Source of the DNA: Fistulifera solaris | Lineage: Eukaryota > Bacillariophyta > Bacillariophyceae > Naviculales > Stauroneidaceae | Direction: 5' to 3' | Assembly (NCBI GenBank): GCA_030295235.1 | Contig: AP026132.1 | Coordinates: 124,001-188,000, forward strand | Length of the DNA stretch: 64,000 bases | Shown here: positions 2,310 through 57,325 of the stretch, one piece after another | Position numbering within the stretch: position 1 is the first letter of the stretch | Layout: every line of letters starts with the position of its first letter | The notes under the pieces: generated by a model | Told to the model about the DNA's origin: nothing | Databases searched by the model: none | The model's input: only the letters and a program-made list of their open reading frames with translations | Made by a program: the position numbers and the translations under genes

Positions 2310-5300
2310 CTATTCGGCGGCCCGATCAAATACATTCGAGTGCGGAGGGGGAGCCGCCAGCTCCAGCAGTTCCTGTGTACTCGTATCCAGCAGTGAATCC
2401 CACGCGAAGTAACTGGACTGGGAGTTGCATTCGAAACAGAAGGGGCCCGGAGGACTCAATTCCCAATCCACTTCCTCCATTTCTTCGCATTGCGTCAGGC
2501 GGAACATCTGTGTCGTGTCGACATCCGTGCGACCTTCGAGCTGTTCTCCCCAAATACAAAGGTTCTGTGCGAAAAAGCGACATCCTCGGAACATTTCTTT
2601 CATGCTACGGATGCTATCCAATTGCCAGGATGACAAATCTTGGTTGAACGCGGAGGCGGACAAGAACATTTGCTCCATACTCTGCACACGAGAGACATCC
2701 CAGTCGGATAAATCCGAGTTAAACGAAGATGCCCAAGAAAACATCCCGCTCATGTCCGTGACACTCGATACGCTCCATGACGATAGCTCGCTCGAAAAGG
2801 ACGTGGCCTGAGAGAACATTTTGACCGTGGTGGTTGCGTTGGAAACCGTCCAGCGGGACAAATCAGCATTGAATCGCGAGGCGCCTTCGAACATGGAAGT
2901 GAAATTGGTGACACTGGACACGTCCCAGTTGGACAAGTCCGCATTAAAGGAAGCGGCAGCACGAATACGGTTGCTGGAGAATAGCTCACTCAAGTCTCGA
3001 ATTCCAGAGAAGCACCAATTGCCGATCTCGTCTCCATATGTCGCTTCTAAGTATTCGAGAGTTTCTCCCAGCAAGTAAAGATCCACTGCATTGACAAGCT
3101 CTTCCTTCGATGAAAAGCACTTGACTGGAGCGGGTTTGGACGTTGGGCTTGATGTGGTGCTAGACGAGGGGCGGGATGTAGGCGGAGGTGGGGCGGACGA
3201 CGTTGGCTCCCCGGCAAACGCCCATATGTCTTGTCCTGAGAATACATCATCTACGAGGACTTCTTGAATGCTATTGCTGTCAAGTAAGGTACAAGTAGTT
3301 GTTGTTTCATCTTCTTGCAAACCCCTGCAATCGGCATTAAAACCAATAAATGGCAGATTTGTTGTTGAATTCGTGCCAAAGCAGATCTCACAAGAATTGC
3401 AAGCGATGCCATCAAACTCAATTTGGCATCGCAGTGCGAGGCCGTTGCGATTGTATTCGGTTGAGAAGCACGCATTCTCGTACCCTTGGGATCCACTCAG
3501 GTATTGCACGCATAATCTCTCCGACAAGTTGGAAGCTGCCCCTTCAATTGGTTCTCGTGACGTTGAAATAACGGTATCACCAGATGTGAACACATTGGTT
3601 CCGGAAACAACCGGCGCAATCGAAGCTGTCGGTGACGCTGCAGGAGACTTCGATGACGTTTGTGTTGGTGATGCTACAGGAGACTGCGACAGGGAGTCAA
3701 CCGTAGTCGGGCTTAAAGTTGTTGCCTGCGTGCTATTTGTTTCCTCATCGGACGAAATTGTTACAACTCTTGTGTCTGGGTCACGCAATGAAAGAACAAT
3801 TATAGCCACAGTCAGAGCGGCAATGGCAGCCAGCAACATGAGAATGATGCGCTTGAGGGGTATACCCCACATGCTTGATTGCTTATTGTAGTAGCTCTTG
3901 TCGGTTGGGTAGTTATCCCACGCATCATCTTGGCGATTGAACGAAGCTTTTTCATCATTTCGAATTGCAGAAGAAGGAGCGTGTTCAACCGACGCCTCGT
4001 AGTCCTTCTCATATTCATAATCGTAATCCTCTTCGCTATAGCCAGCATCGTCGTAGTTATTACCTTTTTCTCCTCCATAAGCAATCGCTCTTGATTGAAT
4101 TTGTTGATTGGGTACACTGTGTTCTCTTTCTGCTGCAGGTGATGGCTGGATAGGTCGTTCATAGTCGTCGAACGCAGGGAAGAACTCTGTATCGGTTTCA
4201 GGAAGCGATTCCCTTGCTTCCTGCGATGCTGAAAAATCCATTACGTATTCTGAGTGTTCAGATTTCTTCCAAGATCCAGAGGACTGGTCAGATGCTCTTG
4301 ATTCATTGCGACTTCTCAAAGAACTACTCCCACTTGCTTTGTTCCCAGCGTGCCGACTGAGTACACCTCTTTCTTCGTCAGAATCTGTAGGCGAGTCTTC
4401 ATCGTCGTAAAAGCTATCATTCTCATATGAAGTCTCCCGTTCATCGTCTTTTCTCAATGCTTTACTCTCATGATCAAAGCCAGGAGATAAATGCCTGGCG
4501 TACAACCCTTCACTATAATGGGCTGAGCTACTTTCATCGTCCCTTGATGAAGCCGATTGTGATTCGCTTCTGCTGCGGTAATCGTCTCCTGTCTCCCTAT
4601 CACTTTCATTTCTATCATCATCGTCGAGTCGTTGGGATCCGTCCCTATACCCATTGCCTCTGGGCTCACTATGTTCATCGTCGCCATAGGAACTATCATT
4701 TTCATACTCGTAATCGACGTTACGAGTAGCACAAGTCGCGTCTTTGTACCCGGTCTTTGTTTCGTCGTCTGCATATTGACTGAAGTGTGAAGTTTCGCTG
4801 TCATCGTCGTCGTCTCGGGCGCTTCTGTCTGTATAAGAGTTGACGTTTCCTTCAACGCTGTTTTCAGACGCCAATATTGCCTCTCTTGCCAACCACCTGT
4901 CATCTCCAATCACCACACCATTATCATTTTGAGCAATTTCGTCTTCGGAATCAAATTTACCGTGACCTCGCCTTCCCAGTCTATCACTGTCTGTGTGATT
5001 TGCAATTTCTCTTTCTCCGGCATCATCATCATCGACTTGAGATTCAGCGACAAAACTGACATTACTATAACCTTGGCTGTCCGACTTGAATTGGGATTTG
5101 TGCCTGTCCTCGATATCATTGCTATTTTGCGATCTGCCGCTGCTATCGGAATTCTCGAAATTGATGAAATGGTCCTCATCGTTATCTGACCCTTCATCGT
5201 CGCCATAAGCCCGGTCCGGAACGTAATTATTATCATAGCCTTCTTCGTCAACGTAAGCATCTTGATTGAAATGTGATCCTTTGCCGCTATGACCACTGCG

Positions 5301-8300
5301 TGCTGTAATGTCTTTTGTTTCTTCTGTGTCGCCGCCATATGCCGCGTTGTATTCTTCGTCTGCGAAACTTCCCTCGTCTCGACAATCGTTGTCGGGCTCG
5401 GACTCGGTATCAAACTCGAGACCGTTGTCAATACTTCGGCTAGACTGCGAACCGTCACTGCCCCCGTAACTGTTTGCATCCTTCTCATGGTTATAGTCGT
5501 GGGGCGCGCTCTCCTGCTCAGCGCCGTTGTATGATCCTGTAGTATCGCTGTTTGTCTCATCATAATCCCGATCGTCATGATAGTCTTTATCTTCATCGTC
5601 AACATTACAGCCAAACAATGATCTGTTAATGTAGTTGCCATCACGAGGTAAATTTTGTCCCCCTACCTCTGCGTTGTCGGCTTGATCTTCACGATCAGAT
5701 TCAGAGTTGAACTCTTTTGAAATTTCGATACTGTGGCTAGAATGTGATCCATTATTGCCCTTGTATTCGCCTGAGTCATTCTCGTCGGCGTCGGACTCGG
5801 ACTCGTCATTCTGCTTATCACTGTCGCATGATCCTTCTGCTTCGTTGTTTCTCTCATCATAACCCCGATCGTCATTATAGTCATTAATCTCATGGTCAAC
5901 ATCACGGCCGGAGAATGAACTATCATTGTAGTCGACATCATAAGCTGACTCTTGTCCCCCTGCTTCTGCTTTGTCGGCGAAGTCTCTTTGTCATTCTCAA
6001 CAAAAGTCGCGCTTTCTTGATTTTTACGATCAACTTCAGAGTTGGACTCCTGTAAATTGTCGATACTGTGGCTAGAATGTGATCCAAGGCAGCCCTTGTA
6101 TTCGCCTGAGTTTTTCTCATCGCCGTCTGATCCGTTGTACTGAGTTTCGTCATGACCTGATAACCGGCTTTCATTGTAATTCTTGTCTTGGTCCGGTTGG
6201 TCATAATCACAATATTCGTCGCTGACATCACGGCCAGAGTAGGATCTGTTGCTATTACTATAGTCCTGACCTCCGAATTCTTCTTCTTCGTCCTGTGAGT
6301 GGGCACCATGGGCAGTGTCGTACTTATCGTCGGCGAAACTAGCGTCGTCTTGACTCTCCTGATCGGAATCGGACTCAGGATCCGATGCAGACTCATGCGT
6401 GCTGTCAACATTGTGGCTAGATTGTGATCGATCACTGCCCCCGTAACCCCCATAGTCATCGGCGTTGTTGTCCTCGTCTTCGGATCCGGATTCCTCGCCA
6501 TCGTAAGAGCCTCCACTGTTCATATCCTCATTATAATCGTCATCTTCATTGTCAGCGCCACGGCTGCCATGAGAACCGTTGCTGTAATCGTCATAAACTC
6601 CTTCTACTTCTGCGTTTCCAGCATAAGATGCATGTGCATGGTGATCCGCGAGACGGGCATAATTATGATCATTGTCGTTAAATTCTGACCACGATCCAGT
6701 TGACTGTCCATCGCTGCCCTGATAGAGCTCTACGTCATCATGACTGCCTGTCGCTCCATCGTAAAGTTTGTTGCCGCGGTCTGATGGTCCGTCACCGGTG
6801 CTAGATTCGTCAATGTCTCCACCGTCGTTATAATCATCGCAATCATCATTGACGCTAATAGGATGTGATCCGTCACTGTAGTCTCCATCATAGTCTGATG
6901 CGTCACTGGCATCTTCCAAGTCATCGCATTCAGGTGCGTCGCATCCTTCACCGGCAAAGCTGTCGTTGTTCTGACTCTGGATATTTGAATTACTAAACTG
7001 GAGTTCCGAATTGCGTAGGCAGTCGATGTTTTGGCTTCCTTGCGATCCGTCATCGCTCTCACAGTCAACTGCGTCGTTTTCATCGCAGCCGCGCTCGTTG
7101 TATTGTCCGTTGCTACAAGTCTCATTATTGTGTAGATTCTCATTGCAAATATCTTCTTCCTCTCCAAATTCACGCCCGGAGTGCGATCCGTCGCTATAAT
7201 CACCACTACAATAAGATGCCTCACTGGCCTCTCCTAAGTCGTCGCAATCGATGGCGTTGCATCCTTCTTCGGCGAAACTGTCGTTGTTTTGACTCTGATC
7301 TATATATTGGGGTTCCGACTCGTGTATGCTTTCAATACTGGGGCTTGCTTGGGATCCATCGTTGCTCTCGTGGTCAACTGCATCGTTCTCATCACCGCTG
7401 TCTTCATTTATTTGATCATCGCTGCGCACCGAAACCTCTCCATCTCCATCACTATACGTCTCATCACGGTCCAGATTGTTATTTTGATCATCGAATTCAT
7501 CTTTGATAATACGACCGAAATCTGATCCTTCGCTGTAATCACCGTCATGACCTGACGCTCCTTCTTCATGTACGTCACCGTCCTCGGGCGCGCTGTAATC
7601 GTCGCGAGCGAAACTATTATTCTTTTGACTCTCTTGACTAGACTCAGATTCCCACTGGTGCGAATTGTCGACATTGTGACTTGATTGTGATTGATCGCCG
7701 ACTCCGTAGTCTTCTGCGTCTCTCTCGTCGTCGCGCGATTCACCGTAGTGTTCATCACCAGTCTCGTCAAAGTCCAAATCGTCATTGACATCATCATATT
7801 GAGGGTCGACATTACTGTCAACAGCGAATCCGTTGCTGAGTTCGCCGTCATGAGGTGCGGAACATTCTTCTTGGTCAAGTTTGGACTCGGACTCGGACTC
7901 GGATCCATGTCCATGGCTACTACCGCTAGAATGAGACCCGTCGCTGCCATAGTAATTGTCTGCAAGGTCATAGTGTCCATCACCGAATGTACTATCGTGG
8001 TCTTCATCTTCATATTCGTCCCCACCGTCAAGGCAAGAAGGCGAACCTCTGCTTTCATCGTTGTTTCCTTGATCGTCGTCGGCAAAGCTGCTATTACTTT
8101 GACAATCATTATCGGGCTCAGTATGCTGATCGATTCCTTTCAATTGGCTGAATTGTGATAAGCCACTGCAAGAAGCATTGGCTGTACTGCCGCGATGTCC
8201 TTCGTCGTTTACGTGTAAGTTGCTGGTGTTTCGAAATGATTGCGTGCGGTTGTTGTAAAAGTCTTCTTCATCTGCATAGTCATTACAAGCTTCGGAGACG

Positions 8301-11300
8301 CCATGAGAGAATTTTTGTCGGTTGGCGTTTCTGAAGACATTTCCGTAATGTGTGCATCATCGATGCAGCGACTAGAATCTTTAAAGCCATCATTGACTCC
8401 GTCCATTGTTTCATCTTTATTATTGTTGATTGTGTTTAAGCTTTCATTGCATGGTTCGCGGTCAAAACCTTCGCCGTAAGTGCCGTCTTGAGTTTCGTAC
8501 TGTTTGCCATCAAGGCTCGACTGGTTATTGTTGCTGCAAACCATACAATTGTCATTGTCTGCATCCTCTCTGCTATTTTCGGTATCGTTGTAATCGACAC
8601 CATTATTTTCTCTTTCGCAAAAGAGCCGCGCCTTGATTCGGATCCTACTTCACCCCCCGACGACAGTTGCTACAGTTTTCTTCATAATATCATGCTTGTA
8701 CTTGATGTCTTCATCGCCCATCGTTTGGTTCCCTGGTTCATGTTCGTATTCGTCGATGTCCTCGTCCATATCATTGCTTTCCAGACACCTACTACTACCG
8801 TCAGCGCTCGCTTGAGAACCCTGGCTGTAGCCTTCCTCATCGGCGTATCCGTTTTGTCCATCATATCTTGTATCGTCGAAGCTTCCGTCTTTATTGTCGA
8901 TAACTTGGACCAATTGCGGGCCAATACGATAAGCGAGCCCATCGGTAGCATCTCTTTCGAAAAATTTATTGTATTCTACAGTGTCCTGTAAAAGCATTGA
9001 CTCGCCATCGTTCGCTAAGGGTCTATCGCCTGAATAATCGTCTTCATGTGGTTCCCCGGTCATGCCATCGTCACAATCTGTGTTCGAAACGTCGTTGTAT
9101 TCAGCGCCATCGTATTCGTACTTCTTATCGCCAATCTCGCCCTCTGATTGGGAAGCGCCATTACAATCATTTTCGTCACCGAGCCCGCTTGAACAGTCTC
9201 GAGAATAATCTTTTTGGTGTTGAATATCATCGCAGTCACCGAGCCTGGCTTGTGATTCGCCGATGTTCTCATCAGCAACTGTATCCTTGATCTCGGACTC
9301 AACTTGGTGCCCTATATTGTCTTTGAAGCTTGATCCTGAAATTTTATTGTTATCAATACTTGAAGCAATGTCACTCTCAGAGTTGGCATCCGTTTCCCGC
9401 AAATCGCCCTCTAAATTATCGTTTCCATCGTGCTCGACAAGACTCGTCTGTGACGCATCGCTGTTGGCCCCATCGTGTTCTTCAGGGTCGTCACTACCAT
9501 TTACGTACTCGTTCGTAATGTCAAGGATTCCAGACTCGTTACCATCGTTCTCTGCCTGCGATACTTCTTCCCCAGCTTCGATTTCGGCCTCATGGTGACA
9601 AGCGCTGACATGCATTTTAAAGTCTCGGGTGTTTTCAGCAAAACCTTCAAAATGCTCGTGACATTCCTCTAAAGGTCGAGGTATCTTTGCTACGGTGATC
9701 TTATCAACGCCATTTTCATCCTCTTGGTCTGTCGAATCCAAAGTCTTGTTTGCTCTCATGCCATGATGACAACTTGATTGTGATTCATCCAGACACTCCA
9801 TCTCCTCCACAGGCCGATCGGCTTCGCGATCACTATACTCACCGTAAACCTCACTACTACCACCAACGTACCTTGATTCACCAATGACCTCCTCTTCAAT
9901 CCCATTTTCAACTTCTTCGTCCGTGTAAGAGGTATCCGTTGATTGCGCAGTATAGTCTTTGGTTGCTTGTGCTTCGTCATGGTTTTGTTGATCCTCCGAA
10001 ACGACTTCACTACCGTCGTCGACGCTGCCGTGATCATCGGCGCCATCACCAGTATTCCTGTTGTCGCCTAAACGTGACCCGTCACTCTCTTGATCCTCCT
10101 CTCTAGTCAAAGTTTCGTCTTCAACTTCTTCCTCGGTATAAGAAATCTCGTTGTCATTTCCATCGTTGTCGCGCCCGCTGGACCGTGACACGTCTATACA
10201 GTCCTCTTCCCATAACTCTCTGCTCGCTTCTTCGTCGCCTAGCAAACCGTCGCTTTCATCTTCATTGTCATCACTTTCTCTTGAAAGAGATTCGCTATGA
10301 TACTCCTCATCATCTTCCGATGGATCCTCTTCGTGCGTTTCTCCCCGGGCGGAACATTCACTGACACCATCCTCTTTCTCTAAAGCATCGTGCAGATTTT
10401 CCTCATCACTATCAGGCAGTTCGGTACTTGTCACTGAAAAACTGCTGTCAAAACTCGATGCTGAATACCGTGGATTTGCCGCCATTTCTCTCAAAGCGGT
10501 CATAAACTCTTCTTCTCGATCCGCAAATTGCTCTAGCAAGAAATCAAGATTACCCAACTGCTCCGGCATCACGTCAGCCACGAGCTTTTCTAGTTTGTTC
10601 CGACGAGCCACTTCGTCATCCTCTTCTTCATCACTGCTCGTGCCTGCCTCTGCCGCGTTTGGATTGCTGCATTCTGAAATATCGTGAGGGTAATGGTCTT
10701 TGGAAATATCATCGACATGAAGCGGCGTCGTTTGTGGGTTGTTAGCATCGCTTACTCCATGCCCCACGTCTGAGAGTTCAGTATCACGAGGTTTGGCCGA
10801 ATCATCTTGTACCGTAGCATGAACCTGAAGGAAAGTGTCCGCTTTGCTAGATGCAATTGACGATTCTGTCGACAGGGATTGCGATTGTGTTTGACCGGGA
10901 CTCGAGGTTTCTTCATGCTTGATAAAGGGGTCAGCCAGATCGTTTCCTCTTATATTCTCATTGCTCGTCACTAAGCTGCCTGCAACACTACTTTCTAAAG
11001 AATCGTCGATATCGTCTTGGTTACTGCGCGAATGACTGTTACGGCTGTCATCATCGCGTTCCGAGCCTCTCTGACTGTAATCTTGACTGTATGAATTTTG
11101 GCTCTGGTTGTCTCGATGGGAGCTGCTGTCATCTCTACGACGTCGTCTCCCACGTCTATGAGTACTTTCCTTATCCGATTGATGGGAAGCGCTACCGTCC
11201 TGGCTCATTGCACTCCGACTACCGGCATCGGTGTCACTATACAAGCCCCCGCTTCCTTGACTGTCATCCACCATTTCATGAATAGGTTTGTGACTGCTCA

Positions 11301-11841
11301 GACTATTGTCGTCAACCATGTGATGGGAACTATCCTGGCTGTCATCAACAAGGTATGTTTGCCCCTCTTGACCCCGGCTATCGTTGTAACTTGTTTCGCT
11401 GACGTCAAAGGACTCCTCCTGCATCGATCTGTCCTGCCCACTGTCACTCATAATGCTGTGACTCTCCTTTGAGTAGCTTTGGTCGCTATAGCTGTTGTTA
11501 CTACTATCCCTGGAACCTCCATCGTTGTAACTGCGATTGTCGTCCGAACTGTGTTCCGAAATGTGGTGGTGACTTTCTTCGTCGAAGTACTCGCCATCGC
11601 TCTCGGCAGATGATACACTGGTCTGATCGCCGCTGTATTTCTTGCGAATGAGCAGATTGTTGTCACCGATTCGACCGTTTCCAGCGTCTTGTGTGTCTTC
11701 GCTGAGAATACTGTAGTCATCAATCGGGGGAATGAATCTTTTTTCCCCGGCATTACAAGATTCTTTTGTTAGGATCAGATAACGAACTAGGACTTGTTTA
11801 GAGAGTCGGGGATGCTTTTCGTTGAGTTCAATTGCATCCAA
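2310..11841 (-). CDS. Giant Ser/Asp-rich membrane protein with C-terminal BspA-like (DUF285) repeats
   Basis: I read 11841 to 2310 as one gene of about 3,170 residues. It is made of open stretches 11841-8650, 8544-8290, about 8290-5980 and about 5980-2310, which follow each other with shifts only at short homopolymers (C6 at 8653-8658, T4 at 8606-8609, T5 at 8312-8316, and a T3 near 5980). With one base changed per run the length is a multiple of three and the repeat motifs continue across each junction. The first ~2,600 residues are Ser, Asp, Glu, Asn, Gly and Tyr rich, with recurring modules containing SFAD, GSDGSHSSHS and YSGRD. Next come a membrane segment (IILMLLAAIAALTVAIIVL), a Ser/Thr/Pro linker, a Cys-rich module and DUF285 repeats (WDVSSVT...MF). 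No signal peptide is seen. The start is unresolved: 11841 is a TTG and no in-frame ATG lies upstream before a stop. An acceptor-like 'ttctccag' just upstream suggests a missing first exon. Function unknown; DUF285 repeats are usually surface-exposed. Confidence 0.75.
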
Positions 11842-12270: not shown

Positions 12271-15200
12271 TCAGAAGCCACAGCGAAAGCAAAACGGACT
12301 AGGTGGACTCAAAGAAAAGTCGATTTCGCTTGTAGTAGGGCATTGTGTGAGACTGAATACTGTTGACGCATTTACGATTCGTCCCTCCAGTTGATCGGCC
12401 CAGGAGCACAAGTCTTGAGAGAAAAAGCGAGCTCCGCGAAACATTTCATTGAACGATTCGAGACTACCCAAATCCCATGAGGAAAGGTCAATGTTATAAG
12501 CGGACGCTGAAAAGAACATCTGATCCATCTTTCTAACACTTGATACGTCCCAGGAAGAAATATCTGCGTTGAAAGACGATGCCCTTGAAAACATGCCGGT
12601 CATGTCCGTCACGGATGAAACATTCCATGACGATATGTCACCGGTAAAAGAGGTTGCTTGGTTGAACATATTGGCCGTACTTGTGACCGAGGATACATCC
12701 CAACCGGATAAATCCGAATTAAAAGTGGACGCACCCTCGAACATGGATGTTAGGTCAGTGGCTCCCGAAACATCCCATCCTGATAAATCTCCATTGAACG
12801 TCGCCGCAGAGGGAGACCGAGAGAGAGAAAACAGGAAACTGAGGTCTTCAACATTGGAAATGCACCAATCTCCAATGTAAGACCCTCCATTGACACTGTT
12901 ACCAGCAATGAATTGATCCACGGCTAGTATAAGGTCGTCCCTTGAGGAAAAACAGTCGTCGGTTGAATTGGGAGCTAGAGTAGGAGCGATCGTCTCGTTC
13001 AGTGTTGAGTTATCCGTTGGAGCAACAACTGGCGCAGATGTTACGGTCGGCCAAATATCTTGATCGGAAAATGCTGGCCCCACTAAGAAATCTTGGATGT
13101 TATCCTCCGTGAGCTCTGTGCAGTTCGTGGGATCGCCACAGTCAGTCTCGAAACCGACGTATGGGAGATTACTTTCTTGAATTGTGCCAAAGCAAATGGA
13201 ACATGTGCCACAGCTACTACCGTCGTATTCGATCATACACCGAATTGCTAGTCCATTTCGATTGTAAATAGTGGAGAAACAGGCTTCCTCGTACTGCTCC
13301 GAACCGGCCAAATATTTGACACACAATTTCTCAGATAGATCAGAACTTGTCCCTTCGATTGGCTCTCGCGAACTTTGTATCTTAGCGTCCCCTGATATGT
13401 AAACGTTATCTGGCAAGAGGGTCGGAGGTATTGTTTCTACGGGAGCACGTGTCGGTGGATTGGACGTGACATTAGTCACAGTTGGAGTTGTTGTCGAGTT
13501 GCCGACATTGTCGATACTGATGGGAGTGGTGCTCGAGTCGCGTCCCCTCACGATCAATATTATAATGACCACCAAAAGTATGAGTACAAGGCCAATGTAG
13601 CCATAGTGGCTTTTGCCGGGCCAGAAAGAATCTCCCTTAGGACCCTCTTTCCTGTCTGTGAAGTGTTCGTCAGAGTTAGATTTCGTTTTGCTCCACAGCT
13701 GAAATGAATTCAGAAAATCAAAAAAGCGTGGTGTATTTCTGGCGCCGTTATTCTCTCTTTTTGATAAACTTGTGCTTCGACGTCATCATCACTGCTATTA
13801 GATTTACTCCCGAAAGCATCAACGGCATGATCATCCTCAGCAACAACGCGAGCATGCTGCTCATCGAAGTTGCTTTCCTGAAAATTAAATCCATATACAT
13901 TTTCGGAAGCCTTGGCGCTCTCATAACTTGGGCTTTCTGACCTATATCCGTGTGACGATGGATTCCATTCGACATCATGCACGTCTGACATTGGGCCATC
14001 ATTGAACTGATTAGAAAATTCCGTGAATTTATATTGCTCGTGGGAGTCACTAGCACTTCTATCAGAGTTGTCTGCATCACCATCTTCAATCGTACCACGA
14101 CCATCAATCTCGATGGAACTCGCAGCCGATTCACTTTCCGAAAGCTCGCGATGTCTCTCCCTTGTTGAACTTTCATTGTCGTCATCATAGCGAGTATCGT
14201 CTTCGTGACGGTTCGTTTCAAGACTTGGTTCTGAGTAATCTCTGTCTCTGTCTGAATATTTATTATCACTTGGATCCGAGAATTCTTCAGCCGTTCGCCG
14301 TTTCTCGTCAATGGAGAGATTTTCTCCATCGCTGTAATTCTCTGAATAATCTTCATTAATGTCTACGTGCGCTGCCTCGTATTTTCCGTTAGCTGCTGAG
14401 CTCTCCTCATCATCTGTAGTGTCATCCGAATGTTCTTCATTGGCCTCGACTTCAAGTGTCACACGATTCTGGTGTTCTGTTGAACTTTCATCGTCATCAT
14501 TTTCGTCATCACCATATTCCCTTGTATATTTATAGTCGCCGTGCATCAAATCTTTCTCGTCTACATTATGTAAGCTCTCGTCGTCGTAATCACTACTCGG
14601 ATCTTTTTGGTAAGCTTCCACAGTCTCGACATCTTTGCTTGAAATATCTTTAAAAGTTGATCTTTCACCGTCGTAGCTACCACGCTCTCCTCCACTTTCC
14701 TCGTCCGATTCGTCATTGGATACGGAGTAGTCTCTGTTTCCAGCCAAATTACCGGCGTCGTAGATCCCACTTGTACGGTCCTCGGTCTCTTCGTCTCTAT
14801 TCATGGATTCGTCCTCATCGCTACGGCTTGTCGAATCTTCTCCGCTTCTTCTATTCTTTTGTTGATTTAATTCAACCGGATCTTCGTCACCGGTCAAATC
14901 CTCCTCCTCTTCATCGAAATTGCTGTCTTGCTTACCGCCACTCTCACCATCCGCTCCGATTGAGCCTTCATTATGGTTGATACTATCGACATTCTCACCG
15001 CCTCGTGATTCAATTGGTATTGTCTGATCTACACTCTCCGATGAGGATTCGTCGTGAGCTTCCTGCTCTCTCTGTGGTGCCTCCGCACGGTTGTCGTCCT
15101 CTTGAAGACCTATGTCATCATTCGAGCTTTCGTCCTGGTCACTGTTGTCTCTTGAAACAATAGGAATTGACTCACTTTGATCTTCGACTTCATTATCTAT

Positions 15201-15941
15201 GCTTTCTTTTACAGCTGAACTTGGTTGATCCTCATACCGATCGTCGTCAATTGAGCTTTCGTCAGAACTGCCACTCCTGTCGAAAGTAGTTCCTTCATTT
15301 TTACTTTCTGTATGCTGAAGTTCCTGCGCTTGATCATGATCTGCTTCTCCATCGGAGCTTTCATCGTAGTCGCTGCTGCCGTCCTCAGAGTCAGTTTTAT
15401 TTTCCACAGCAGGTGGAGGCAAGATATTCTCATTTTGATCCTCGCCTCCATTTGAGCTTTCGTCTTGATTTACTTCTCCATTCGAGCTTTCGTCGTAGTC
15501 GCTGCTGCCGGAGGAATGCCCCTTATTTTTCACGTTAACTGGTGAACGTCTTTCATCTTCGCCAGAATCATCGTCTCCATACGAACGATCACTGGAGTAG
15601 CTGCCGTCATCTTCCTTTTCCTCAAGCGATCCCCGCTGATCCTCCTCTTCATAGGATCGACTATCGTCTTCTTCTTCGCTGCTACTTCCCGAGTATTTGC
15701 CCCTCCGTTCGATAGGTGACGGCGGATCCTCGTCATCATACGAGCCATCGTCGGACGCACTGCTTCCATCGGAATAATTTCCCTTCCTTTCAATCGGTAA
15801 GGGCTCTTCATCGGAATCCTCGTCGCCGCTACTGCCGTCGGAATAGTGTCCTCTGGAGGCTCGCCGCTCGTCTTCTTCCGATGACGAGCTATGATCGTCG
15901 TCGTCTTCATCACTACTGCTATCGGAATAACCTTGACGCAT
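12271..15941 (-). CDS. Acidic Ser-rich membrane protein with BspA-like (DUF285) repeats, two exons
   Basis: Exon 1 is 15941-13770 (724 residues from ATG) and exon 2 is 13698-12271 (475 residues plus stop). The 71-bp intron ends in a pyrimidine-rich acceptor (ttcatttcag) and joins the frames exactly at a codon boundary; a donor 12 bases upstream would also keep frame. The order matches the giant neighbour: a long acidic Ser/Asp/Glu region with internal repeats (YSDGSS and DYDESS motifs), a single membrane segment (YIGLVLILLVVIIILIV), a Thr/Pro linker, a Cys-rich module (SREPIEG, YNRNGLA, GTCSICFG) and at least five DUF285 repeats (FNSDLSGWDVSSVT type). About 1,199 residues in all. It has no signal peptide, so a type II orientation is possible. 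The frame is intact, unlike the neighbour. It is clearly a paralogue of the 2310-11841 gene, as the Cys module is nearly alignable residue by residue. Confidence 0.82.
13699..13769 (-). other. Intron in BspA-like gene
   Basis: GT-AG interval of 71 bp. Without removal the acidic frame hits TGA and the membrane segment is in another frame; with removal both join in phase 0. The acceptor tract is strongly pyrimidine-rich; the donor (gtttat) is weak. Confidence 0.65.
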
Positions 15942-34832: not shown

Positions 34833-37040
34833 TTACGCGAAACCATTATGACGCAACAGGGCATCGGGGCTCGGTTCGCGTCCTCGAAATTGCTTGAACA
34901 CTTCCATGGGATTTTCACCGCCACCCAAACTGAGCACCGTCTCGCGGAATTTCATCCCAATTTGTCTCACGGCCTCTTCATTGTCGAGGCCGACTTCTTC
35001 AAAAGCACTAAATGCATCCGCGCTCATCACTTCCGCCCATTTGTAGCTGTAGTAACCAGCGGCATAGCCGCCCGCAAAAATATGCGAAAAGCTACACAAG
35101 AAGCGATCGTCGGGCAACGGCAACAAATACGGAGTGTACTTGGCCGCCACCCGGTGCTGCACATCGAAAATCGATTCTCCCTCTCCCTTTTCTCCCGCTT
35201 CCGCGTCAAAGCTCGAATGCAGCTCCAGGTCGACTTGTCCAAATACCAGTTGACGACACGACATCATTCCCGCTCCGTACACACGTTGTTGCTTCAACTT
35301 TTGGAACATCTCTTCGGGCATCGGTTCACCCGTTTCCCAGTGTTTCGCGAAACCGTAAATAGTGGCACGATCGTAGCACCAGTTCTCCATGAACTGGGAC
35401 GGAAGTTCGACGGCATCCCATTCCACACCATTAATTCCTGAAACATCTCCAACCGTCACAGTCGTCAGCATATGCTGAAGACCATGGCCAAACTCGTGAA
35501 ACAAGGTTTCGACTTCACGAAAGGTCATCAGAGACGGTTGCGATCCCACTCGGGGGAGAGCCATTGCACGTCAAGTACGCCACAGGCACATGACGGTTCA
35601 CGGCCTCACTTTTCCCAATGCAAACATCCATCCAGGCTCCACCTTGTTTATCTTCTGGACGGGAATACGGATCGAGAAAGAAACTGGCAATATGCTGGTT
35701 CGTTGCTTTGTCGTACACTTTGTAAAAGCTCACATCCGGATGCCACACCTGCGCTTCACCATTGGCAGCTTTGACTTCAATGTTGAAAATGCGCGATACC
35801 AAGGCAAACATACCATCCAAAACCGCCGGCAACGCAAAGTACGGGCGCGTTTCTTCTTCCGTCAATTCGAATTTCGATTCTTTCAATCGTTCACTCCAGT
35901 ACGTGATATCCCACGCTTGTAATTTCTCCAGGTACTCTTCTCCTCCTTGGGCACGGGCCAGAGCGGTAATTTCTTCCAATTCTTGTTCGGCCGCCGGCAA
36001 CGCCCGCGCGGCCACCAAATCGGTCAATTCGGTCACGGCCTCGACACTGGGCGCCATTTTGGAAGCGAGACTCAATTCCGCATAATTGGCAAATCCCAAC
36101 AGCTTTGCCATTTCTGCCTTGAGTTTCAATGTTTCGTAAATGATAGGAATGTTGTTCTTTTCGGCACGGCATTCCGACGCCCGCGACAAGTACGCGCGAT
36201 AAATGGTTTCCCGAATGGTCCGATCGTTCATATGCGACATGACGGCGACGTAGGATGGCATATCGAGCGTGATTCTCCACGGTCCCTGGACCGGATCGAC
36301 CTCGGTTTGAGTAAAAGCCGCATGCGCACCGGCCCACAAGGCCTTGGCACTGTCGGGAACACCTTCAACTTGTGCCGGATCGTCTATCGTCAGTGAATAT
36401 TGCTTGGTTTCATCCAAAACATTGTTACTAAACGTGGTCGACAATTGCGCCAATTTCATTTGAATTTCATTGAATCGTTCCTTGTCGGCACCATCCAATC
36501 CGACACCCCCAATTGCATGGCCCGAAGTGAATTGGATATGGCCCGTTGTTGCGGTCGTGTTGTGCTTTGGATTGTTTGTAAAGCATCAAAGACGGGCTTA
36601 CTTTGCGAGAAACGACTCATGGCTTGTACAATTTTGGGTTGATTCTGTTCGTACGCTTGTCGCAAGGTGTCTCCATTGCGCACACCATTCAAATGTCCGG
36701 CGACACCCCACACGAAACTCAGTGGAAACTGAATGCGTTCGATTTCCGGCAAGACTTGATCGTATGCGGTTGGCTTTTTGGAAGAAGAGAGGCTGTCTTC
36801 CAGAGCGGTAAATTGTTCTTCCATTGCGACCAACAGTGTTTCGACGGCGGGTGTCAAAAATTCCGGTTCGAGTTGTTCAAATTGCGGAAGATCGTCTTGT
36901 AACAAAAAAGGATTGGTCGTTGTAGCAGTTTCGGTCGACGCCGTCGAGAAACGCTTCACTGGGGATCGAGACGCCCCGACCACCGAAAAGGCGTCCGTCG
37001 AGGAGAGCCAAAGAAGCGATGTAGCAACGGTCCATTTCAT
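34833..37040 (-). CDS. M3 family zinc oligopeptidase (oligopeptidase A / organellar oligopeptidase), plastid-targeted
   Basis: Degrades short peptides such as cleaved transit peptides. About 735 residues from ATG at 37040. The N-terminus is a signal peptide followed by TDAFSVV, an ASAF-like motif, then an Arg/Ser/Thr-rich stretch, as in diatom plastid presequences. The catalytic core has HEFGHGLQH (two His ligands and the Glu base) and a downstream Glu in [10 protein letters not shown], and [22 protein letters not shown] is typical of M3 enzymes. The frame changes twice, at C5 36506-36510 and G5 35552-35556; correcting both keeps the total a multiple of three and restores the motif LTCNGSP...[15 protein letters not shown]. 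It is divergent from psb27, another plastid gene. Confidence 0.9.
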
Positions 37041-47628: not shown

Positions 47629-48228
47629 GATGAAGGAGCGTCAGTTACTGCCGTGTCGTTGCGCAATTTACTATCCTTTTGTTTAGAAGGACTTCCCAGA
47701 GAGTATGTAAGGCAAAACAGAAAGGAAGAACGAAAGAATGCTTCAACAACTGTATAATGATGAACGTTGCAAAATGGTCGTCTTTTTTTTTGCGTTTTGC
47801 TGCGGTACTCGTTACTATAACTTTTGCTCCACAAACTTGTTCCGTGATTAATCAGGAACTAAAACCAAATAGAGGTTCACGTAACGATGCGATTCTATTA
47901 TAGCACTGTTAGGGAGGCGCATAAAAAATGAGGCCATCGCTCTTGTCTATCATACGTTGTGCTGTTTTCGACCACAAAAAGTAGACCAAACAAAGAACTA
48001 ATGGAAGAACAAGTCTATGTTGTCAACCTCCTTTGAAAGCTCTCACGTTGGGAGGGTTCTTCCTAAGGATGGTACACGACCGTGGATTTGAAATTATAAA
48101 AGCATGCTCAAGGCTCCCTCTAGAACTCTCTGTCACAGAGCAATAATTTCTCAAGAATTGTTTAGCAGACATCTTCACTTCAAGTTGCTACAAAGATGTG
48201 ACTGACATCTAAGAGAGATAAAGGCTTC
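47629..48228. other. Intergenic region, no supported gene
   Basis: About 600 bp between the PP2A B'' start and the end of the HSP70 relic. Nothing recognised. Confidence 0.5.
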
Positions 48229-50023
48229 TTAATGGTTTGACTCGAACCAGTTGTTGGCTTGATGGCTACCCCACATCGGCTTTGTCATCAATAAGATCCA
48301 CTTAATCTGAGAGTTTGTACATTTCCAAAGTTCCGTAACCATGCCCTCGCTTTCTTCCCGGGAAAGTAGACGGAGTCCCTTGTCGTGGGATACGGTGACC
48401 TTCTTCTCCTTCCCAGTGGACCTCTCAATGGCACTGACGGTAACCGCATCGTCCGCATCCACATACACGGTGACATCGATTTGGGGCTGCCCCGAGGCCA
48501 ACGGCAAAACCCCGTCCAAGCGGAACTCTCCGAGAAAGTTGTTGTCCTTTGTCATGGAATGTTCGCCGAAAATCCGGATCAGTACGCTCGGTAGGATATC
48601 CTTGCACACGGAAAAGGTCAGAGTCTTTTTGCAGGGAATGTGATTGTTTTGCCGGATAAACGTAATCATCCTCCCTCCGATACTTTCAACTCCGAGTGAG
48701 AATGGAGCAACATCGAGCAACAAAATCTCGGAGAGTTTCTCACTCTTCACACCCGAAAGAAGTGCCGCCTTTACGGTGGCTCCGAACGTGACAGCCTCGT
48801 TGGGGTTGACCCGTTTACAAAGCTCCATCCCATCGAAAAATGCCGAAGGCATGGATTGAAGTTTGGGAATACGAGTCGATCCGCCGACCAGAACAACCTC
48901 GTGTACCTGATCTTTGGGCATTTTTGAGTCACGCAATATCTGCTCACAAATACCGATACACTTTTCGAAGTAATCCATTCAAAGAGCTTCGAATCGAAAA
49001 CGAGTGATAGTTGCCAAGAAATCAATACCATCATACAGTGAAAGAATGTCAATGTGCTTCTGAGAAGAGAACGATAAAGTAATCTTCGCGACGCTCACAA
49101 GCCTGTAAACGGCACATCGAACTGTAATTGTGCGATATGTCCCGGTGATGGAGACGCTGAAACTCCTTCACAAAGTAGTCCACCATGCGATTGTCAATAT
49201 CTTCGCCCCAAACTTCGTGTCTCCCGCTGACGCTTTCACCGTATATTTCATCGTCCAAGGTGAGCAAGGAAATGTCCAAACAACCGCCACCCCAGTCGAA
49301 AATGAGCACATTTTTCTCGCAGCCCCTATGATCAATACCGTTAGCATTAGCAGCAGCCGTCGGCTCGTTAATGAGACGAAGAACATTCAAACCAGCGATC
49401 GAAGCAGCACACTTCGTAGCTTGACGCTGAGCGTCATTGAAACAAGCAGGGACACTAATGACGGCATTCTTGACTTCTTTTCAAGATATGCTTCGGTAAT
49501 CTCTTTCATTTCCATCAATATCATGGCACAAATTTCTTCAGCTTGAAAATGTCGCTCTTCTCCTTTGTAATGTGCCTTGATGATCGGGTTATCGCAAGGC
49601 CCGAAACAACGTCAAACGGCCAGTGTGTCATATTCGATTGGACAGCAGGATCCGTAAATTTGCGTCCTATAAGACGCTTGGCCGAAAATAGTATTTCGTG
49701 CATTCGCTGCATTCTGAGACATTGCGGCATCGCCCATGAGACGCTCCGTTTCGTTGAAGGCAACGTCGAAGGGATTGGCGTCGACCATGATAGTCGGTAA
49801 TGATTTCGACGCGATTGTTGCGCCATACACCCACACAACAATTAGTCGTTCCAAGGTCGATTCCTACAGTTTGTCCTGCGACTGGTGAAGATAATAAGAG
49901 AGTGAGTAGGGAATTTTGGTGTAACTGGAAATAAAAAGCTGTCCTTGGTAATGCCGAAGGCCCAGAAACTATTCGTCGTTAACAGGATGCACCCTAATTC
50001 GAATACTTACCCGGCATGATCAT
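48229..50023 (-). pseudogene. HSP70 family relic (probably a decayed copy)
   Basis: Recognisable HSP70 blocks lie in order on the minus strand: [20 protein letters not shown] (49.86 kb), [105 protein letters not shown] and LLLDVAPFSLGVESIGG. A first exon at 50023-50011 and a 129-bp GT-AG intron (50010-49882) are kept. Unlike other genes here, breaks are not only at homopolymers: there is an in-frame TGA just before MDYFEKC (about 48979-48981), the TTPSYVAF block is eroded to NPFDVAF, the DLGGGTFD motif reads DWGGGCLD, and the lid domain is cut short (~100 residues missing). About five frame changes in all. A divergent HSP70 with assembly errors remains possible. Confidence 0.75.
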
Positions 50024-50259
50024 TACTTCGTTGCATCAATCTTTCACTCTTTAACGTTCACGTACTTCCTTATTAATAAAGTTTGAATACTTTCTTGCCA
50101 GCAATGCTTTAATGGAAGGAAAGGCTGCTGAATGATCTGCGGTTTTGAAGTGAAAACGAGCCGGGAAAATGACGAGGCCAAAAGAAAAGGGTTCGCGGTT
50201 TTTTCGTATGCGAAGTATGTGATGTCATAACTCATGACCCAGAAGCAAGAAACAACACA
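50024..50259. other. Short gap upstream of the HSP70 relic
   Basis: No gene seen; 240 bp. Confidence 0.4.
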
Positions 50260-50373
50260 GATTTGCAAGAGGTCGATAGCTACCGGGTACCACCATTTCT
50301 CGCAGCACTGGTGATCAATAAGCTCCGGATTGTGGCAGCTCATGATGCTACTGTGCAGTCCATTATGAAAAGG
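50260..50373 (+). pseudogene. Fragment of the MYND-family gene (C-terminal helix region only)
   Basis: In one frame this reads DLQEVDSY, then FLAALVINKLRIVAAHDAT, which matches FLVALLIIKLRIVAAIDAT of the copy at 53.8 kb. No MYND finger or start lies before it. It is an isolated relic about 1.3 kb upstream of the main MYND cluster. Confidence 0.7.
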
Positions 50374-50778
50374 CGTGATGTCCGCTAATGTAAGTCCGAG
50401 GCTCTTTGACGCTTACAACTGTATGATGAGTTTCTATCGTATACAATGCTTATCTCGAGTGGCATTTGCCTACTATCATCTTTGCTTTGCGGACAAGAAA
50501 ACGTCTTACTTGGTATCCGGGTTTCCAGCGTACTTGGTTCGATCAGGGAGCGTCGTGACAAGCATGAACGCGACGAAATAGCATCAGTTTGCACTTATAA
50601 TAGAGCAACGTCGGATGTAAGATTGAATTATAAATCATAGTGTAGCGTTGGCATGCACAGATACACTAAGTCAATTATCGTAATGCTCATTGAAAGGATA
50701 AACAATGACGAGTTCATTCAAAGGTTACAAGGCATGGTTGCAGGCCGGAACACGAGGGAAACCAGTATTCAAAACTAA

Positions 50779-51240
50779 CTAGTGATCAGTCGTTGATTCG
50801 GTGAGGGGCTGGACTTTGATCGTGGGAAAAGTGACTTGCACCGTGTCCGCAATCTCCTCCCTTTCCCGCCGTCTTCCCGAATCCACATAATAGCAATAAT
50901 ACACCGTCTTGGTTACAACTTCGAGCTCGTGCTCCTGGCAGATACACAAATCTGCGCGCATCGGATTCTTCATTCGTTTTCGTAGTTTCAACCGCTTCAG
51001 CCATTCTTTACGGATGCAATCTTTCTTGGCGAGGTTCAGGAGCATTTCCTTCTTCATCGATCGTTTGGGTGTGCTCTGCGCCCCCCGGCAATCGCTTGAA
51101 CGCACCCGAATAGTTTTTATTGTTGTGTTTACAGGATGGCACGCAGCATTTGGTGTTGTAGCTGGGTGGAGGACGGGGTTTGTTTAATTTTGTGACAGTC
51201 AAGGCGCCGTCATTGGTGGGAGGATGTGCACGGTTGACAT
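50779..51240 (-). CDS. THAP-like zinc-finger protein
   Basis: About 153 residues. The N-terminal half shows a C2CH pattern like a THAP domain: KCCVPSCKHN, then a central Trp (RKEWLKRLKL), and CICQEHELE as the closing C-x2-H. THAP domains bind DNA through one zinc and occur in P-element transposases and host regulators. No transposase domain follows, so it could be a host gene derived from a transposon or a short free-standing factor. The frame shifts at C6 51081-51086 (plus strand), and probably at a CC near 51213, which would connect to the ATG at 51240; both corrections together give exactly 154 codons. The C-terminal part has VYYCYYVDSGRRREREE and no other known motif. Confidence 0.6.
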
Positions 51241-51635
51241 GGTTTGTCGGCGTCGCTTTTTGTCCCCGACGCTCGCTGGAATGAGATCCATCCTCTTCCG
51301 AAAGGAAAATGTAGAAGGCAGGATTAATTTCGCTTTGGAATAGTCTAAAATTGAGGTAATGATGCGATTGAGTTTATCATGTCGCCGAAAGGCGAAAAAC
51401 AACGCAATAAATTTTTCAAAACGTCGTCATTGGAGACCCGGATCACAGAGTCAACGGAAATACGTCAATTTTTACATAACAATAATCGAGTGACATAGTG
51501 TCGAAACGGTTATCACCTATGAAACCTCATTTTTGTCCGTGTCGCGCGTTATCATCCACAATAAAATAAAACGATCGCTACCAGGTATTCGCGATAAAAA
51601 CGCAATCTTATCTGATTTTTGTTACTGAAATAAGG
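51241..51635. other. Intergenic region between the THAP-like gene and MYND copy 1
   Basis: About 395 bp between divergent genes. The frame of the THAP gene is open further upstream but without a Met. No other gene seen. Confidence 0.45.
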
Positions 51636-52736
51636 ATGACCGACATAGATGACCTACCCTTGTACGAAGGAAAGGATCCTGAGTTGCTGGAAGCGCCCTC
51701 GCTGCTTTGTTTGCTTAGAAACTCCGGCCAAGCTCTTGCGATGCTCACGCTGTCAGTTAGCCTGGTATTGCAGCGCAACCTGTCAAAAAGTGCATTACGA
51801 GAAACATAGCTTCTTGTGTAAAAACATCGCCAAGGATCAGAAGCGTGCCGTCCAAGAAAAAGCTCGACTCTGCGCTGCCTTTGGCGAAAATATCTTCGAG
51901 ACCGAGGCTGGAAACTTTTATGGCTTGACAGAAACATATAATTACTTGGATATGACGAATGCTTTGATTAGCTGGACTTGTTCTATCGCTTACCAAAGCA
52001 ACGTGAAGCAAGTGTGGGAAAAGTCTCTTTTCTACAATTAGAGCATCTTCGGTTGGTGCTCTCGATCGCATGCGGTATCGATTACCATTCTTCTTGCTAC
52101 AGATGAATCGCTGACGATGGCGCTGTTTCGTTCATTTGACACTGGGTGAAGCTGAAGGATTTCGGGGATACTTTTCCGGATTGGGTTTATGATCTTCATA
52201 GAAACAGCAATGAAGGCGATTGGATCTACCCAGCGAAGTTGATTGCCGATACTCAGACATTTTCAAGGACGTTTTGGGAGGATGAGCTAGAAGAGGTGGA
52301 TCTATCATTTCTTGTAGCGCTTTTGATTATCAAGCTACAAATTTTGGCGGCTCAAGACTTAGCTACACGGTACATTGACTTTGCATTCGGAAGGGATTTC
52401 CGGACAGCGTATCCAGGAAGTGCGGCCTTTGATTGAAGAATTGGTAATTGGTCAGGATGTGGATTTGGATAGTCAGCGAGCGCAAGCCCAGCGGTTATTT
52501 AATATGATTCATTGGAAGAATCCTTCCATGCTTCCTGCAATAGTGAATCCGAGACCAATAATGAGTCAGCGCCCCCAAATAGAGTTTTGCACAGAGAAAT
52601 CAGACCTGGACACCCCTCCGAAGTTCAAGTGATTCTCAACTACGGCAAGGTTACCTTTCATTGAGTACCAGGTGCACTTGGTATGCTTGTGGCACGTTTT
52701 GGCGAGAATCCGGTTTATAACTGGTCTATGGACTAA
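51636..52736 (+). pseudogene. MYND zinc-finger family, copy 1 (probably decayed)
   Basis: Starts at ATG 51636 (TDIDDLPLYEGKDPELLEA). The MYND finger is complete: CFVCLETPAKLLRCSRC, AWYCSATCQ, then HYEKHSFLC. Downstream are the family blocks ETEAGNFYGL, SNVKQVWEKSLFY, HLRLGALDRM, GDWIYP, FLVALLIIKLQ and GQRIQEVRPLIEELV. Three or more frame changes are present (one at CCC near 51695). In addition, the family block FI-R-Y-W reads FI-stop-HW near 52135-52140, where CGA would become TGA, and another stop lies in the last block before VPGALG. These nonsense changes are not run-length errors, so I call it decayed. Confidence 0.7.
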
Positions 52737-53770
52737 ACTGAGGCAGAAGGGGAGAACTGTTAAGTCTGTTCATGCCTTCGAGCATTCGGTGGGTGTGCTA
52801 ATGAGAACCTCGTGTCTAGTTTTCAAATAAAGTGAACCTATAGTTATTCAGGTTGCAACTAAAGGTATTTTAGATCTAAGGAGTCTCTTGCAAAGATGAG
52901 AGACGTAGTCTCCGACTCCTCCTCCTCAACTGACTTTCAAGTCCGGGCACCGTGGCTTTCGTTTGCATAAGCTATCAGTCGAATATTTTGATGCTTTTGA
53001 TGTTATAAATTCTGCTGTTGTCATCGATGCTATACGTTGCTGAATAAATTTGTGATCATTTGTAACCAGAATATTAGACTCTCAAAGTGTAGTTTTCATG
53101 AGATGTGACATAATTCACTTCAGTCCCGGTAAATTGCCAACGCATATCCGCGATGATGAAAGCGATGAAGGGCAAAAAGCTGCGTTTTCGACCGCCATGA
53201 TGAGCATGCAGCCATAAACACTGTCATTTACCAGTAAAACACGAAGATGCTGCTCGAAAGCGTTGCGGAACTTGTTATCTCGGGCGTTTTGATGACGAGG
53301 CTGATAGATGCACGAGGACACACGACCCTCATCCCACGACGACTCCTCCTCTGGCAGTGCCGTAGCTGCAGTTGTCTCGCGATGATCCTTGACAAAGCGG
53401 CAAAGCGCTTGGCATTTGCGATGAGACCGATGATGTTTTTGTTGTGTAACGGAGATTTCATTTGTGTCGAAAACCGCACTGCACATAACGTTTTTTTTTG
53501 ATTTCGAGTAACGGAAAAACTTTTGTCGTGTGAGATGAAAGAACAGTTTGTGAAGCTTTCGATTGATAGTTTTTGACAGACGACAACTGAGTTTTTAAAC
53601 GGGGAACGTTCCTAAAAACACCTATTCATTCCTTCTTTGACATAAATCGCGCGAAACTCAAGCTACGCGGCAAAACCGGAAAGTAGTCACGTGACTGGCG
53701 AGAAGGAAAAAAGGGTCTACCGACACCGACACAAAGTTGAGAGTTGGCTCTTGTCATAGCTACCGAAACA
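52737..53770. other. Intergenic region, one weak open frame
   Basis: About 1.03 kb. A 123-codon minus-strand frame at 53115-53486 has no recognised motif and competes with frames on both strands. The last ~100 bp are similar to the region before the copy at 55838 (for example 'gcgcgaaactcaagctac...cggcaaaacc' against 'gggcgaaacctgagctac...cgcaaaacc'), so promoter sequence was duplicated with the gene. Confidence 0.55.
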
Positions 53771-56937: not shown

Positions 56938-57325
56938 CCGCCCGTATAATGGATACTAGTAGACCTAATCAAGTTGATCGTGCAACTCGAATGCATCGTA
57001 CTCCAGGATCCCAAGTTTATTAATTGACAACATGGACTACGAATTTCGACTAACCCATTAGGTAATACATGCCATTGAAATTAGTCTACACTTATTATCT
57101 TGTTGATAGTGTTGTTGGGAATCGTCGTTTTGCTCGATCCAAACGTGTCCGTGCATTGGCGTGACTCAGCAGATGTGCAGTCCCGGATGTTGTAGAATAA
57201 AGATCGTCGTCGCTTTTATTATTATTGTTCATTATTTCCAGTTTGCATGAGGTAATCCTCTTGCAATTTGCAATACAAAAAGATAATTTAAAGCATAACA
57301 TCCCCTGATAGTTGCATTAGGAAGA
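56938..57325. other. Spacer between MYND copies 3 and 4
   Basis: About 390 bp, AT-rich; promoter of copy 4 by position. No gene seen. Confidence 0.5.

What the first reader, a model, noticed from the sequence alone, without database searches (positions are those of the whole stretch)
2310..11841. A single ~9.5-kb gene for a ~3,170-residue acidic DUF285 membrane protein
Neighbouring open stretches share the same repeat modules (SFAD..., GSDGSHSSHS, YSGRD), and the modules continue across each junction once the frame is followed. At 8650 the stop lies in a C6 run and a T4 run 45 bases on compensates, so even that stop is probably not real. Total length after corrections is a multiple of three. 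A polyanionic Ser/Asp region of ~2,600 residues next to a membrane anchor and surface repeats is unusual and suggests mineral or cation binding, or a charged brush.
Basis: partly seen in the sequence, partly recalled or inferred. Interest (0 to 1): 0.75.

Follow-up and report, generated by a model that had tools for sequence, protein, structure and literature searches.

The report
Giant acidic-tailed diatom membrane protein
The split open frames are very probably one real diatom gene, broken only by single-letter errors in the genome assembly; it would encode a membrane protein of about 3,150 residues whose enormous negatively charged tail more likely sits inside the cell than on its surface.

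Summary
The window is from the allodiploid diatom Fistulifera solaris: published target sites of both apt homoeologs are present. A homoeologous copy on contig C16 shows it. Of 33 indels between the copies inside the coding region, 26 are multiples of three and 7 are single bases. No break is shared; each is bridged by an open frame in the other copy. Chaperonin genes in the same assembly show frame changes at a similar rate. The start is ATG 11753, not 11841; about 3,148 residues.

Anatomy, N to C: a polyanionic tail of about 2,630 residues (2,615 analysed, net -513) with one predicted three-helix module and degenerate ~106-residue repeats; one transmembrane helix; a Thr/Ser/Pro stalk; a Cys-rich module; a DUF285 solenoid. 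dN/dS is 0.07-0.18 in DUF285 and Cys module, 0.49 in the tail. The role (surface receptor or adhesin with a cytosolic polyelectrolyte tail) is inferred.

The parts
2310..11753 (-). Whole coding region of gene 1 (ATG 11753-11751 to stop 2312-2310), about 3,148 residues once the single-base breaks are stepped over
   Evidence: Homoeolog alignment; open frames; indel statistics
11575..11753 (-). Conserved N-terminal segment (first ~60 residues, 95-100% identical between homoeologs in 40-residue windows; no signal peptide seen); no other place in the genome at E <= 1
3855..11753 (-). Polyanionic tail, about 2,630 residues (2,615 analysed: net charge -513; C16 copy 2,641 analysed: -484), dN/dS 0.49 over 2,404 codons
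10447..10638 (-). Predicted three-helix module inside the acidic tail, with weaker relatives elsewhere in this genome
   Evidence: (7 other places, some of them likely homoeolog pairs, E 3e-5 to 2e-3), alignment, AlphaFold pLDDT about 87 over most of the helices
5181..7882 (-). Degenerate array of ~106-residue acidic repeats (SFA..., DYSDGS), spanning the 5990 frame break
   Evidence: (43 of 1,081 pairs above shuffle maximum; 35 of 1,081 in C16)
3792..3848 (-). Single transmembrane helix IILMLLAAIAALTVAIIVL; Kyte-Doolittle 3.16, next best window 0.87
3600..3791 (-). Thr/Ser/Pro-rich stalk
   Evidence: Sequence
3219..3599 (-). Cys-rich module, 127 residues; six places in the genome: the gene 1 and gene 2 pairs, and a partial match (residues 6-74) on C19 and C20, behind a signal-peptide-like leader on C19 (C20 not read)
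   Evidence: dN/dS 0.18
2313..3122 (-). DUF285 region (solenoid), dN/dS 0.07
   Evidence: Pfam; AlphaFold; Foldseek to giant-virus and phage BspA-family proteins
11740..11740 (-). Frame break, one base short in an A6 run (private to C15)
8620..8658 (-). Compensating pair of single-base differences (G6 run, T4 run) that creates the stop at 8650 (private to C15)
8315..8315 (-). Frame break at an A5 run (private to C15)
5990..5990 (-). Frame break, one base short (private to C15; not in a long run)
12271..15941 (-). Gene 2, shorter tandem paralogue (about 1,226 residues): acidic tail (724 residues analysed, net -166), membrane helix, Cys module, DUF285; also split by a frame break

Best explanation
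One intact nuclear gene of Fistulifera solaris (11753 to 2310, minus strand, no intron needed), seen as four open frames because the assembly carries single-base indels. It encodes a type II (N-inside) single-pass membrane protein of about 3,148 residues. Outside the membrane: a Thr/Ser/Pro stalk, a Cys-rich module and a DUF285 solenoid that serves as the recognition or adhesion surface. Inside: a very long, low-complexity, polyanionic tail with one folded three-helix module. Most likely mechanism: the DUF285 head binds something on the cell's own wall or mucilage, a neighbour or a surface, and the tail acts as a long cytosolic polyelectrolyte that keeps cationic partners or Ca2+ near the membrane and offers the three-helix module as a docking site for a partner shared with other diatom proteins. 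Shown: open frame in one copy or the other along the whole length, composition, domain order, one membrane helix, selection pattern. Inferred: that the breaks are assembly errors (about 0.88), topology (about 0.75), docking, ligand binding and cellular role (about 0.4).
For: Homoeolog on C16, 85% identical. 26 of 33 coding indels are multiples of three, the other 7 all single bases. No break is shared and each is bridged by an open frame in the other copy: C16 frames of 894, 1,678 and 640 codons, C15 frames of 1,081 and 1,226. Substitutions at codon positions 1, 2, 3: 12.2, 12.3, 19.5%. dN/dS 0.49 in the tail (2,404 codons), 0.13 from the juxtamembrane part to the end (635 codons), 0.07 in DUF285. 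Control: 46 PF00118 chaperonin hits, 33.6 kb, 12 frame changes without room for an intron, 8 of them clean (overlap or gap of at most 14 bases); without contigs C60 and C61 9 in 29.7 kb, the 8 clean ones among them. Here: 5 visible frame changes plus one cancelling pair in 18.9 kb of both copies. An F. solaris assembly of like size is named Fsolaris_ONT_v03reference. Topology: no signal peptide, one helix, Cys module behind a leader on C19, helical module in three fetched frames with no hydrophobic window above 1.32. Module predicted as three helices.
Against: No reads, transcripts or peptides were seen. Tail segments 9.2-8.66 and 8.6-8.3 kb show no codon-phase bias and dN/dS 0.96 and 0.77, and 4 of the 7 single-base differences (9219, 8658, 8620, 8315) lie in or at the edges of this tenth of the gene. 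Phase bias is weak also at 10.0-9.2 and 6.0-5.0 kb. The 5990 break is not in a long homopolymer. Flank charge is weak evidence: N-flank against C-flank (15 residues each) +3/-1 in C15 gene 1, +2/+1 in C16, +1/0 in gene 2. Only three of seven other places with the helical module were read; beside the L059 frame lies an overlapping upstream frame that may belong to it. No ligand or partner evidence.
Confidence: 0.6

Rival explanations
1. Same single gene, but the acidic part is outside (or in the silica deposition vesicle lumen) and binds cations, polyamines or silica as a charged brush.
For: Acidic, Ser-rich composition; silicalemma-associated proteins (PMC5647440, passages) have Ser-rich lumenal parts for which polyamine contacts are proposed; flank charge does not decide the topology firmly; sequons in the C16 tail slightly above shuffled (38 vs 31.5 +- 4.6).
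Against: No signal peptide seen; the Cys module follows a leader elsewhere; 1 KxxK in the tail; sequons in the C15 tail as shuffled (33 vs 32.3 +- 5.3); SxD/E sites fewer than shuffled (69 vs 99.4 +- 8.2).
Confidence: 0.14
2. A recently disabled gene: the frame breaks are real mutations and the locus is a young pseudogene, in one or both subgenomes.
For: Five single-base differences on the C15 side and two on the C16 side; dN/dS near 1 at 9.2-8.3 kb, where 4 of the 7 cluster.
Against: Head under strong constraint between subgenomes (dN/dS 0.07); all 26 indels longer than one base keep the frame; chaperonin genes in the same assembly show frame changes at a similar rate and the M3-like peptidase at 34.8-36.6 kb is broken too.
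Confidence: 0.1
3. Two or more separate genes: soluble acidic proteins upstream and a shorter acidic DUF285 membrane protein (5990-2310) downstream.
For: Open frames as assembled; different dN/dS in tail and head.
Against: C16 reads without a stop across the sites matching 8658, 8620, 8315 and 5990 in one frame of 1,678 codons; repeats span 5990; gene 2 next door has the same tail-helix-head order.
Confidence: 0.04
4. Frame breaks are programmed ribosomal frameshifts or short introns.
For: Six of the seven lie in or beside runs of four or more equal bases (by eye).
Against: No break is shared between the homoeologs and each is in frame in the other copy; single-base differences leave no room for introns.
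Confidence: 0.02

Closest known systems
DUF285 (PF03382) / PARCEL repeat membrane proteins
   Same: Tandem DUF285 repeats on one side of a single membrane helix, mostly predicted external (PMC2996958, passages); fold match to BspA-family proteins of giant viruses and phages
   Different: A tail of about 2,630 acidic residues, a Cys module and a three-helix module; none of these is in the passages read
Diatom DUF285 proteins in general
   Same: DUF285 is the only DUF among the top 100 diatom Pfams in the metatranscriptome and abundant at high latitudes (PMC11992049, passages); this genome has at least 197 DUF285 matches
   Different: The Cys module is confined to six places here. Of eight fetched DUF285 loci of 3.3 kb, six gave a row (L001 and L003-L007; L005 and L006 overlap) and in none was the frame acidic (D+E 0.06-0.13); a full survey was not possible
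Transmembrane LRR proteins MRP2/MRM2 of Pseudo-nitzschia multistriata
   Same: Membrane helix plus LRR domain without a recognised kinase; proposed pheromone receptors or adhesion molecules (PMC6261938, passages)
   Different: Different repeat family; sequences not compared; no giant tail described in the passages
Silicalemma-associated proteins (SAPs)
   Same: Single helix with a Ser-rich part (PMC5647440, passages)
   Different: SAPs have a signal peptide, a lumenal Ser-rich N-terminus and a shorter cytosolic C-terminus: the opposite orientation

Membership tests
DUF285 (PF03382) | Profile score over the curated cut-off | tested here: met
   166.2 bits, cut-off 25, two stretches
DUF285 (PF03382) | Solenoid of short repeats | tested here: met
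   Model pLDDT 65-95 in residues 161-370 of the head except one block of 44; 38 BFVD matches at E <= 0.001, many named BspA-family; no PDB match at E <= 0.001
PARCEL bitopic membrane protein | Repeats on one side of a membrane helix, mostly outside | tested here: inconclusive
   One helix, DUF285 wholly C-terminal to it; sidedness inferred
PARCEL bitopic membrane protein | Match to the PARCEL 25-residue HMM and dyad symmetry of its DNA | not tested
   Their HMM is not at hand; the paper says it generally corresponds to DUF285
Silicalemma-associated proteins | N-terminal signal peptide | tested here: not met
   No hydrophobic N-terminus; one hydrophobic window in the protein (Kyte-Doolittle scan from residue ~6 on; no signal-peptide program at hand)
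Silicalemma-associated proteins | 28-residue conserved cytosolic domain after the helix | not tested
   SAP sequences not compared
Silaffin/cingulin-type silica proteins | KxxK motifs | tested here: not met
   1 KxxK in the tail
LRR receptor kinases | Protein kinase domain | tested here: not met
   Pfam finds only DUF285 in the three large frames of gene 1, E <= 0.1

The most novel reading that the evidence does not exclude
Gene 1 and gene 2 define an undescribed class of diatom cell-surface proteins in which an external DUF285 head is coupled through one helix to a giant cytosolic polyelectrolyte (hundreds to thousands of residues, net charge in the hundreds), in gene 1 with a three-helix docking module. 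The tail would work by charge and length, as a cytosolic brush or tether that gathers cationic proteins or Ca2+ at the membrane when the head is engaged.
Probability: 0.3. Interest if true: 0.62.

Novelty: new variant of a known kind. Interest (0 to 1): 0.42.

Why it matters
DUF285 is among the most transcribed domain families of ocean diatoms and is still called enigmatic (PMC11992049, passages). A member with an interpretable architecture, strong selection on the head and a conserved module in the tail gives a concrete handle (topology, partner, ligand) in a diatom for which genome editing is published (PMC13276009, start of abstract and passages). It also shows that genes in this assembly, chaperonins included, are often split by single bases, so giant genes in it are easily missed.

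Tried and rejected
Introns or programmed frameshifts at the breaks: rejected, since each is a single base against an open homoeolog and no site is shared. Relatives of the head in PDB by sequence (0 matches) and by fold (none at E <= 0.001), and of the three-helix module by fold (none at E <= 10): nothing. Viral contigs for the Cys module (38 pattern matches, none confirmed) or the three-helix module (94, none confirmed): nothing. Pfam on those two modules: only sub-threshold matches. Tandem Repeats Finder: no arrays. Self-BLAST of the tail gave no rows, a test that proved blind; lag autocorrelation did not exceed shuffles (best 0.130 in C15 and 0.127 in C16, best of 200 shuffles 0.141 in each); Smith-Waterman on segments did show the repeats. 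CK2-like sites are not above shuffled (121 vs 123.1). Paper searches: DUF285 + diatom, 3 papers; BspA-like + Phaeodactylum, 0; Fistulifera solaris + genome assembly, 64, 20 listed; Fistulifera/allodiploid/homoeolog, 51, 20 listed; Fistulifera solaris since 2022, 91, 25 listed; diatom + BspA + leucine-rich repeat, 1; diatom + leucine-rich repeat + receptor-like + transmembrane, 28, 15 listed; silicalemma + transmembrane protein + acidic + diatom, 6; diatom + type II membrane protein, 8. In these listings no title named this architecture; six papers were opened, by passages only.

Full report
What the sequence is. The window lies at C15:124001-188000 of a 51.7-Mb, 61-contig genome. A published CRISPR target of the Fistulifera solaris apt genes occurs exactly twice, on C38 and C39, and two further targets with homoeolog-specific PAMs match one copy each (target table in passages of PMC13276009). 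The organism is therefore F. solaris or something extremely close, an oleaginous pennate diatom with an allodiploid genome (raphid: recalled). PMC12159174 (passages) gives an F. solaris assembly row that reads as 62 contigs and 52 Mb and cites Fsolaris_ONT_v03reference. That ONT means nanopore reads, and that homopolymer indels are their typical error, is recalled knowledge; that the window comes from that assembly is inferred from the similar size.

One gene or several. The minus strand shows open frames 11895-8650, 8649-8209, 8356-5663 and 5990-2310. A homoeologous copy lies on C16 at about 109.8-119.4 kb. There the frames are 894, 1,678 and 640 codons, with breaks at other places. In the aligned coding region there are 33 indels: 26 are multiples of three, 7 are single bases, and none has any other length. 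Five single-base differences fall to C15 (window 11740, 8658, 8620, 8315, 5990) and two to C16 (at window 9219 and 4236); the assignment follows from which copy loses the frame. All but the one at 5990 lie in or beside a run of four or more equal bases (by eye). No break is shared, and each is read through in the other copy. The C16 copy opens with ATG at 119317, matching ATG 11753 in the window. Upstream of it indels are 5, 5, 2 and 1 bases long, and no usable ATG lies at 11841.

Is the breakage special to this gene? It does not look so. In 46 PF00118 chaperonin hits (33.6 kb) there are 12 frame changes without room for an intron; 8 are clean (overlap or gap of at most 14 bases), 4 are overlaps of 37-283 bases that may be something else. 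Leaving out contigs C60 and C61 gives 9 in 29.7 kb, the 8 clean ones among them. In three cases (C1, C3, C15) the copy on the neighbouring contig, which I take as the homoeolog, is a single intact hit. This gene has 5 visible frame changes and one cancelling pair in 18.9 kb of the two copies. The M3-like peptidase at 34.8-36.6 kb (family by recall) has two single-base differences and one of 5 bases. The breaks are therefore most simply assembly errors. I saw no reads, so this stays an inference.

Selection. Substitutions by codon position are 12.2, 12.3 and 19.5%. dN/dS (Nei-Gojobori) is 0.49 over 2,404 codons of the tail and 0.13 over 635 codons from the juxtamembrane part to the end: 0.18 in the Cys module and 0.07 in DUF285. 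Against this reading, two stretches (9.2-8.66 kb, 183 codons, and 8.6-8.3 kb, 91 codons) have dN/dS 0.96 and 0.77 and no phase bias; 10.0-9.2 and 6.0-5.0 kb have little; and 4 of the 7 single-base differences lie in or at the edges of 9.22-8.31 kb. The stretch is still open in C16, acidic, and otherwise has only in-frame indels, and a real frameshift there would cost the conserved head, so I take it as relaxed spacer.

Anatomy. Tail: 2,615 residues analysed (about 20 fewer than the whole, left out at the start and at the breaks), 26.7% D+E, 7.1% K+R, 14.3% S, net -513; C16 copy net -484 over 2,641; 50 of 52 blocks of 50 residues are net negative. Identity between homoeologs is highest at the first 60 residues, at the helical module, near residues 1,140 and 2,380 and from ~2,460 on. 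The helical module (10447-10638) has seven other places in the genome besides the two copies, E 3e-5 to 2e-3. The three that were fetched are an SYDDEEGSRSY-repeat frame (33% D+E), a Glu-rich frame (42%) and a frame with LDxLIEAGDW repeats (17%); none has a hydrophobic window above 1.32, against 3.16 for the helix of gene 1. AlphaFold gives three helices, mean pLDDT 80, about 87 in most of the helices. Repeats of about 106 residues lie between residues ~1,270 and ~2,170; tested by 1,081 segment pairs against shuffles, with 43 (C15) and 35 (C16) above the shuffle maximum. Head: one membrane helix, a Thr/Ser/Pro stalk, the Cys module found in six places, and DUF285. In the head model (mean pLDDT 57) the DUF285 part is confident and the Cys module is not. 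Gene 2 (12271-15941) repeats the plan at about 1,226 residues.

Topology. No signal peptide is seen and there is a single hydrophobic window. On C19 the partial Cys module follows a hydrophobic leader, MTRTFFLLSLLVVGTQAS (by eye). Flank charges (15 residues each side) are +3/-1 in C15 gene 1, +2/+1 in C16 and +1/0 in gene 2, the right sign for N-inside but weak. Together these favour N-inside with the head outside, about 0.75.

Function. DUF285 is a solenoid repeat, mostly predicted external in membrane proteins (PMC2996958, passages), highly transcribed in diatoms and likened in shape to antifreeze proteins (PMC11992049, passages). The head is the conserved part and so the likely binding surface. 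A cytosolic polyanion of this length would hold many counter-ions and cationic proteins at the membrane, and the three-helix module would add a specific contact. Adhesion or sensing is my first choice (0.4). Mineral binding in the silica vesicle would need the opposite topology.

Novelty. The DUF285 membrane protein is a known kind. The giant polyanionic tail with a docking module, and the Cys module, are a variant that I did not find in the searches listed under Tried and rejected. Those searches cover open-access papers only.

Noticed in passing
window 12271-15941: Tandem paralogue of the same plan, about 1,226 residues, acidic tail net -166, broken by one frame change in C15 and at least two in C16.
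   Followed up: partly
window 47633-63374: About 15.7 kb without a match at the corresponding place in C16 (C16 151172 to 152250); holds four to five copies of a ~2-kb unit (51.7-60.2 kb) with a Cys pattern that looks like MYND zinc fingers (by recall) and a fragmented HSP70-like gene at 48.2-50 kb.
   Followed up: partly
window 34836-36585: M3-like peptidase (by recall) split by two single-base differences and one of 5 bases against C16; used as a control.
   Followed up: yes
L059 (C16:289401-292200): Acidic open frame with long SYDDEEGSRSY repeats and the three-helix module; an overlapping upstream frame has an amphipathic VGxxVxxGVQ-like repeat that recalls lipid-droplet proteins (by recall).
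   Followed up: no
L056 (C19:882501-885500), 573-1028 minus: Short protein with a signal-peptide-like leader and part of the Cys module; a match also on C20:795208.
   Followed up: partly
G000, e.g. contigs C7/C8, C17/C18, C1, C2: At least 197 DUF285 matches, in dense clusters (the best 150 listed).
   Followed up: no
window 8315-9220: Tail stretch without codon-phase bias and with dN/dS near 1, holding or bordering 4 of the 7 single-base differences, though open in C16 and otherwise with in-frame indels.
   Followed up: partly
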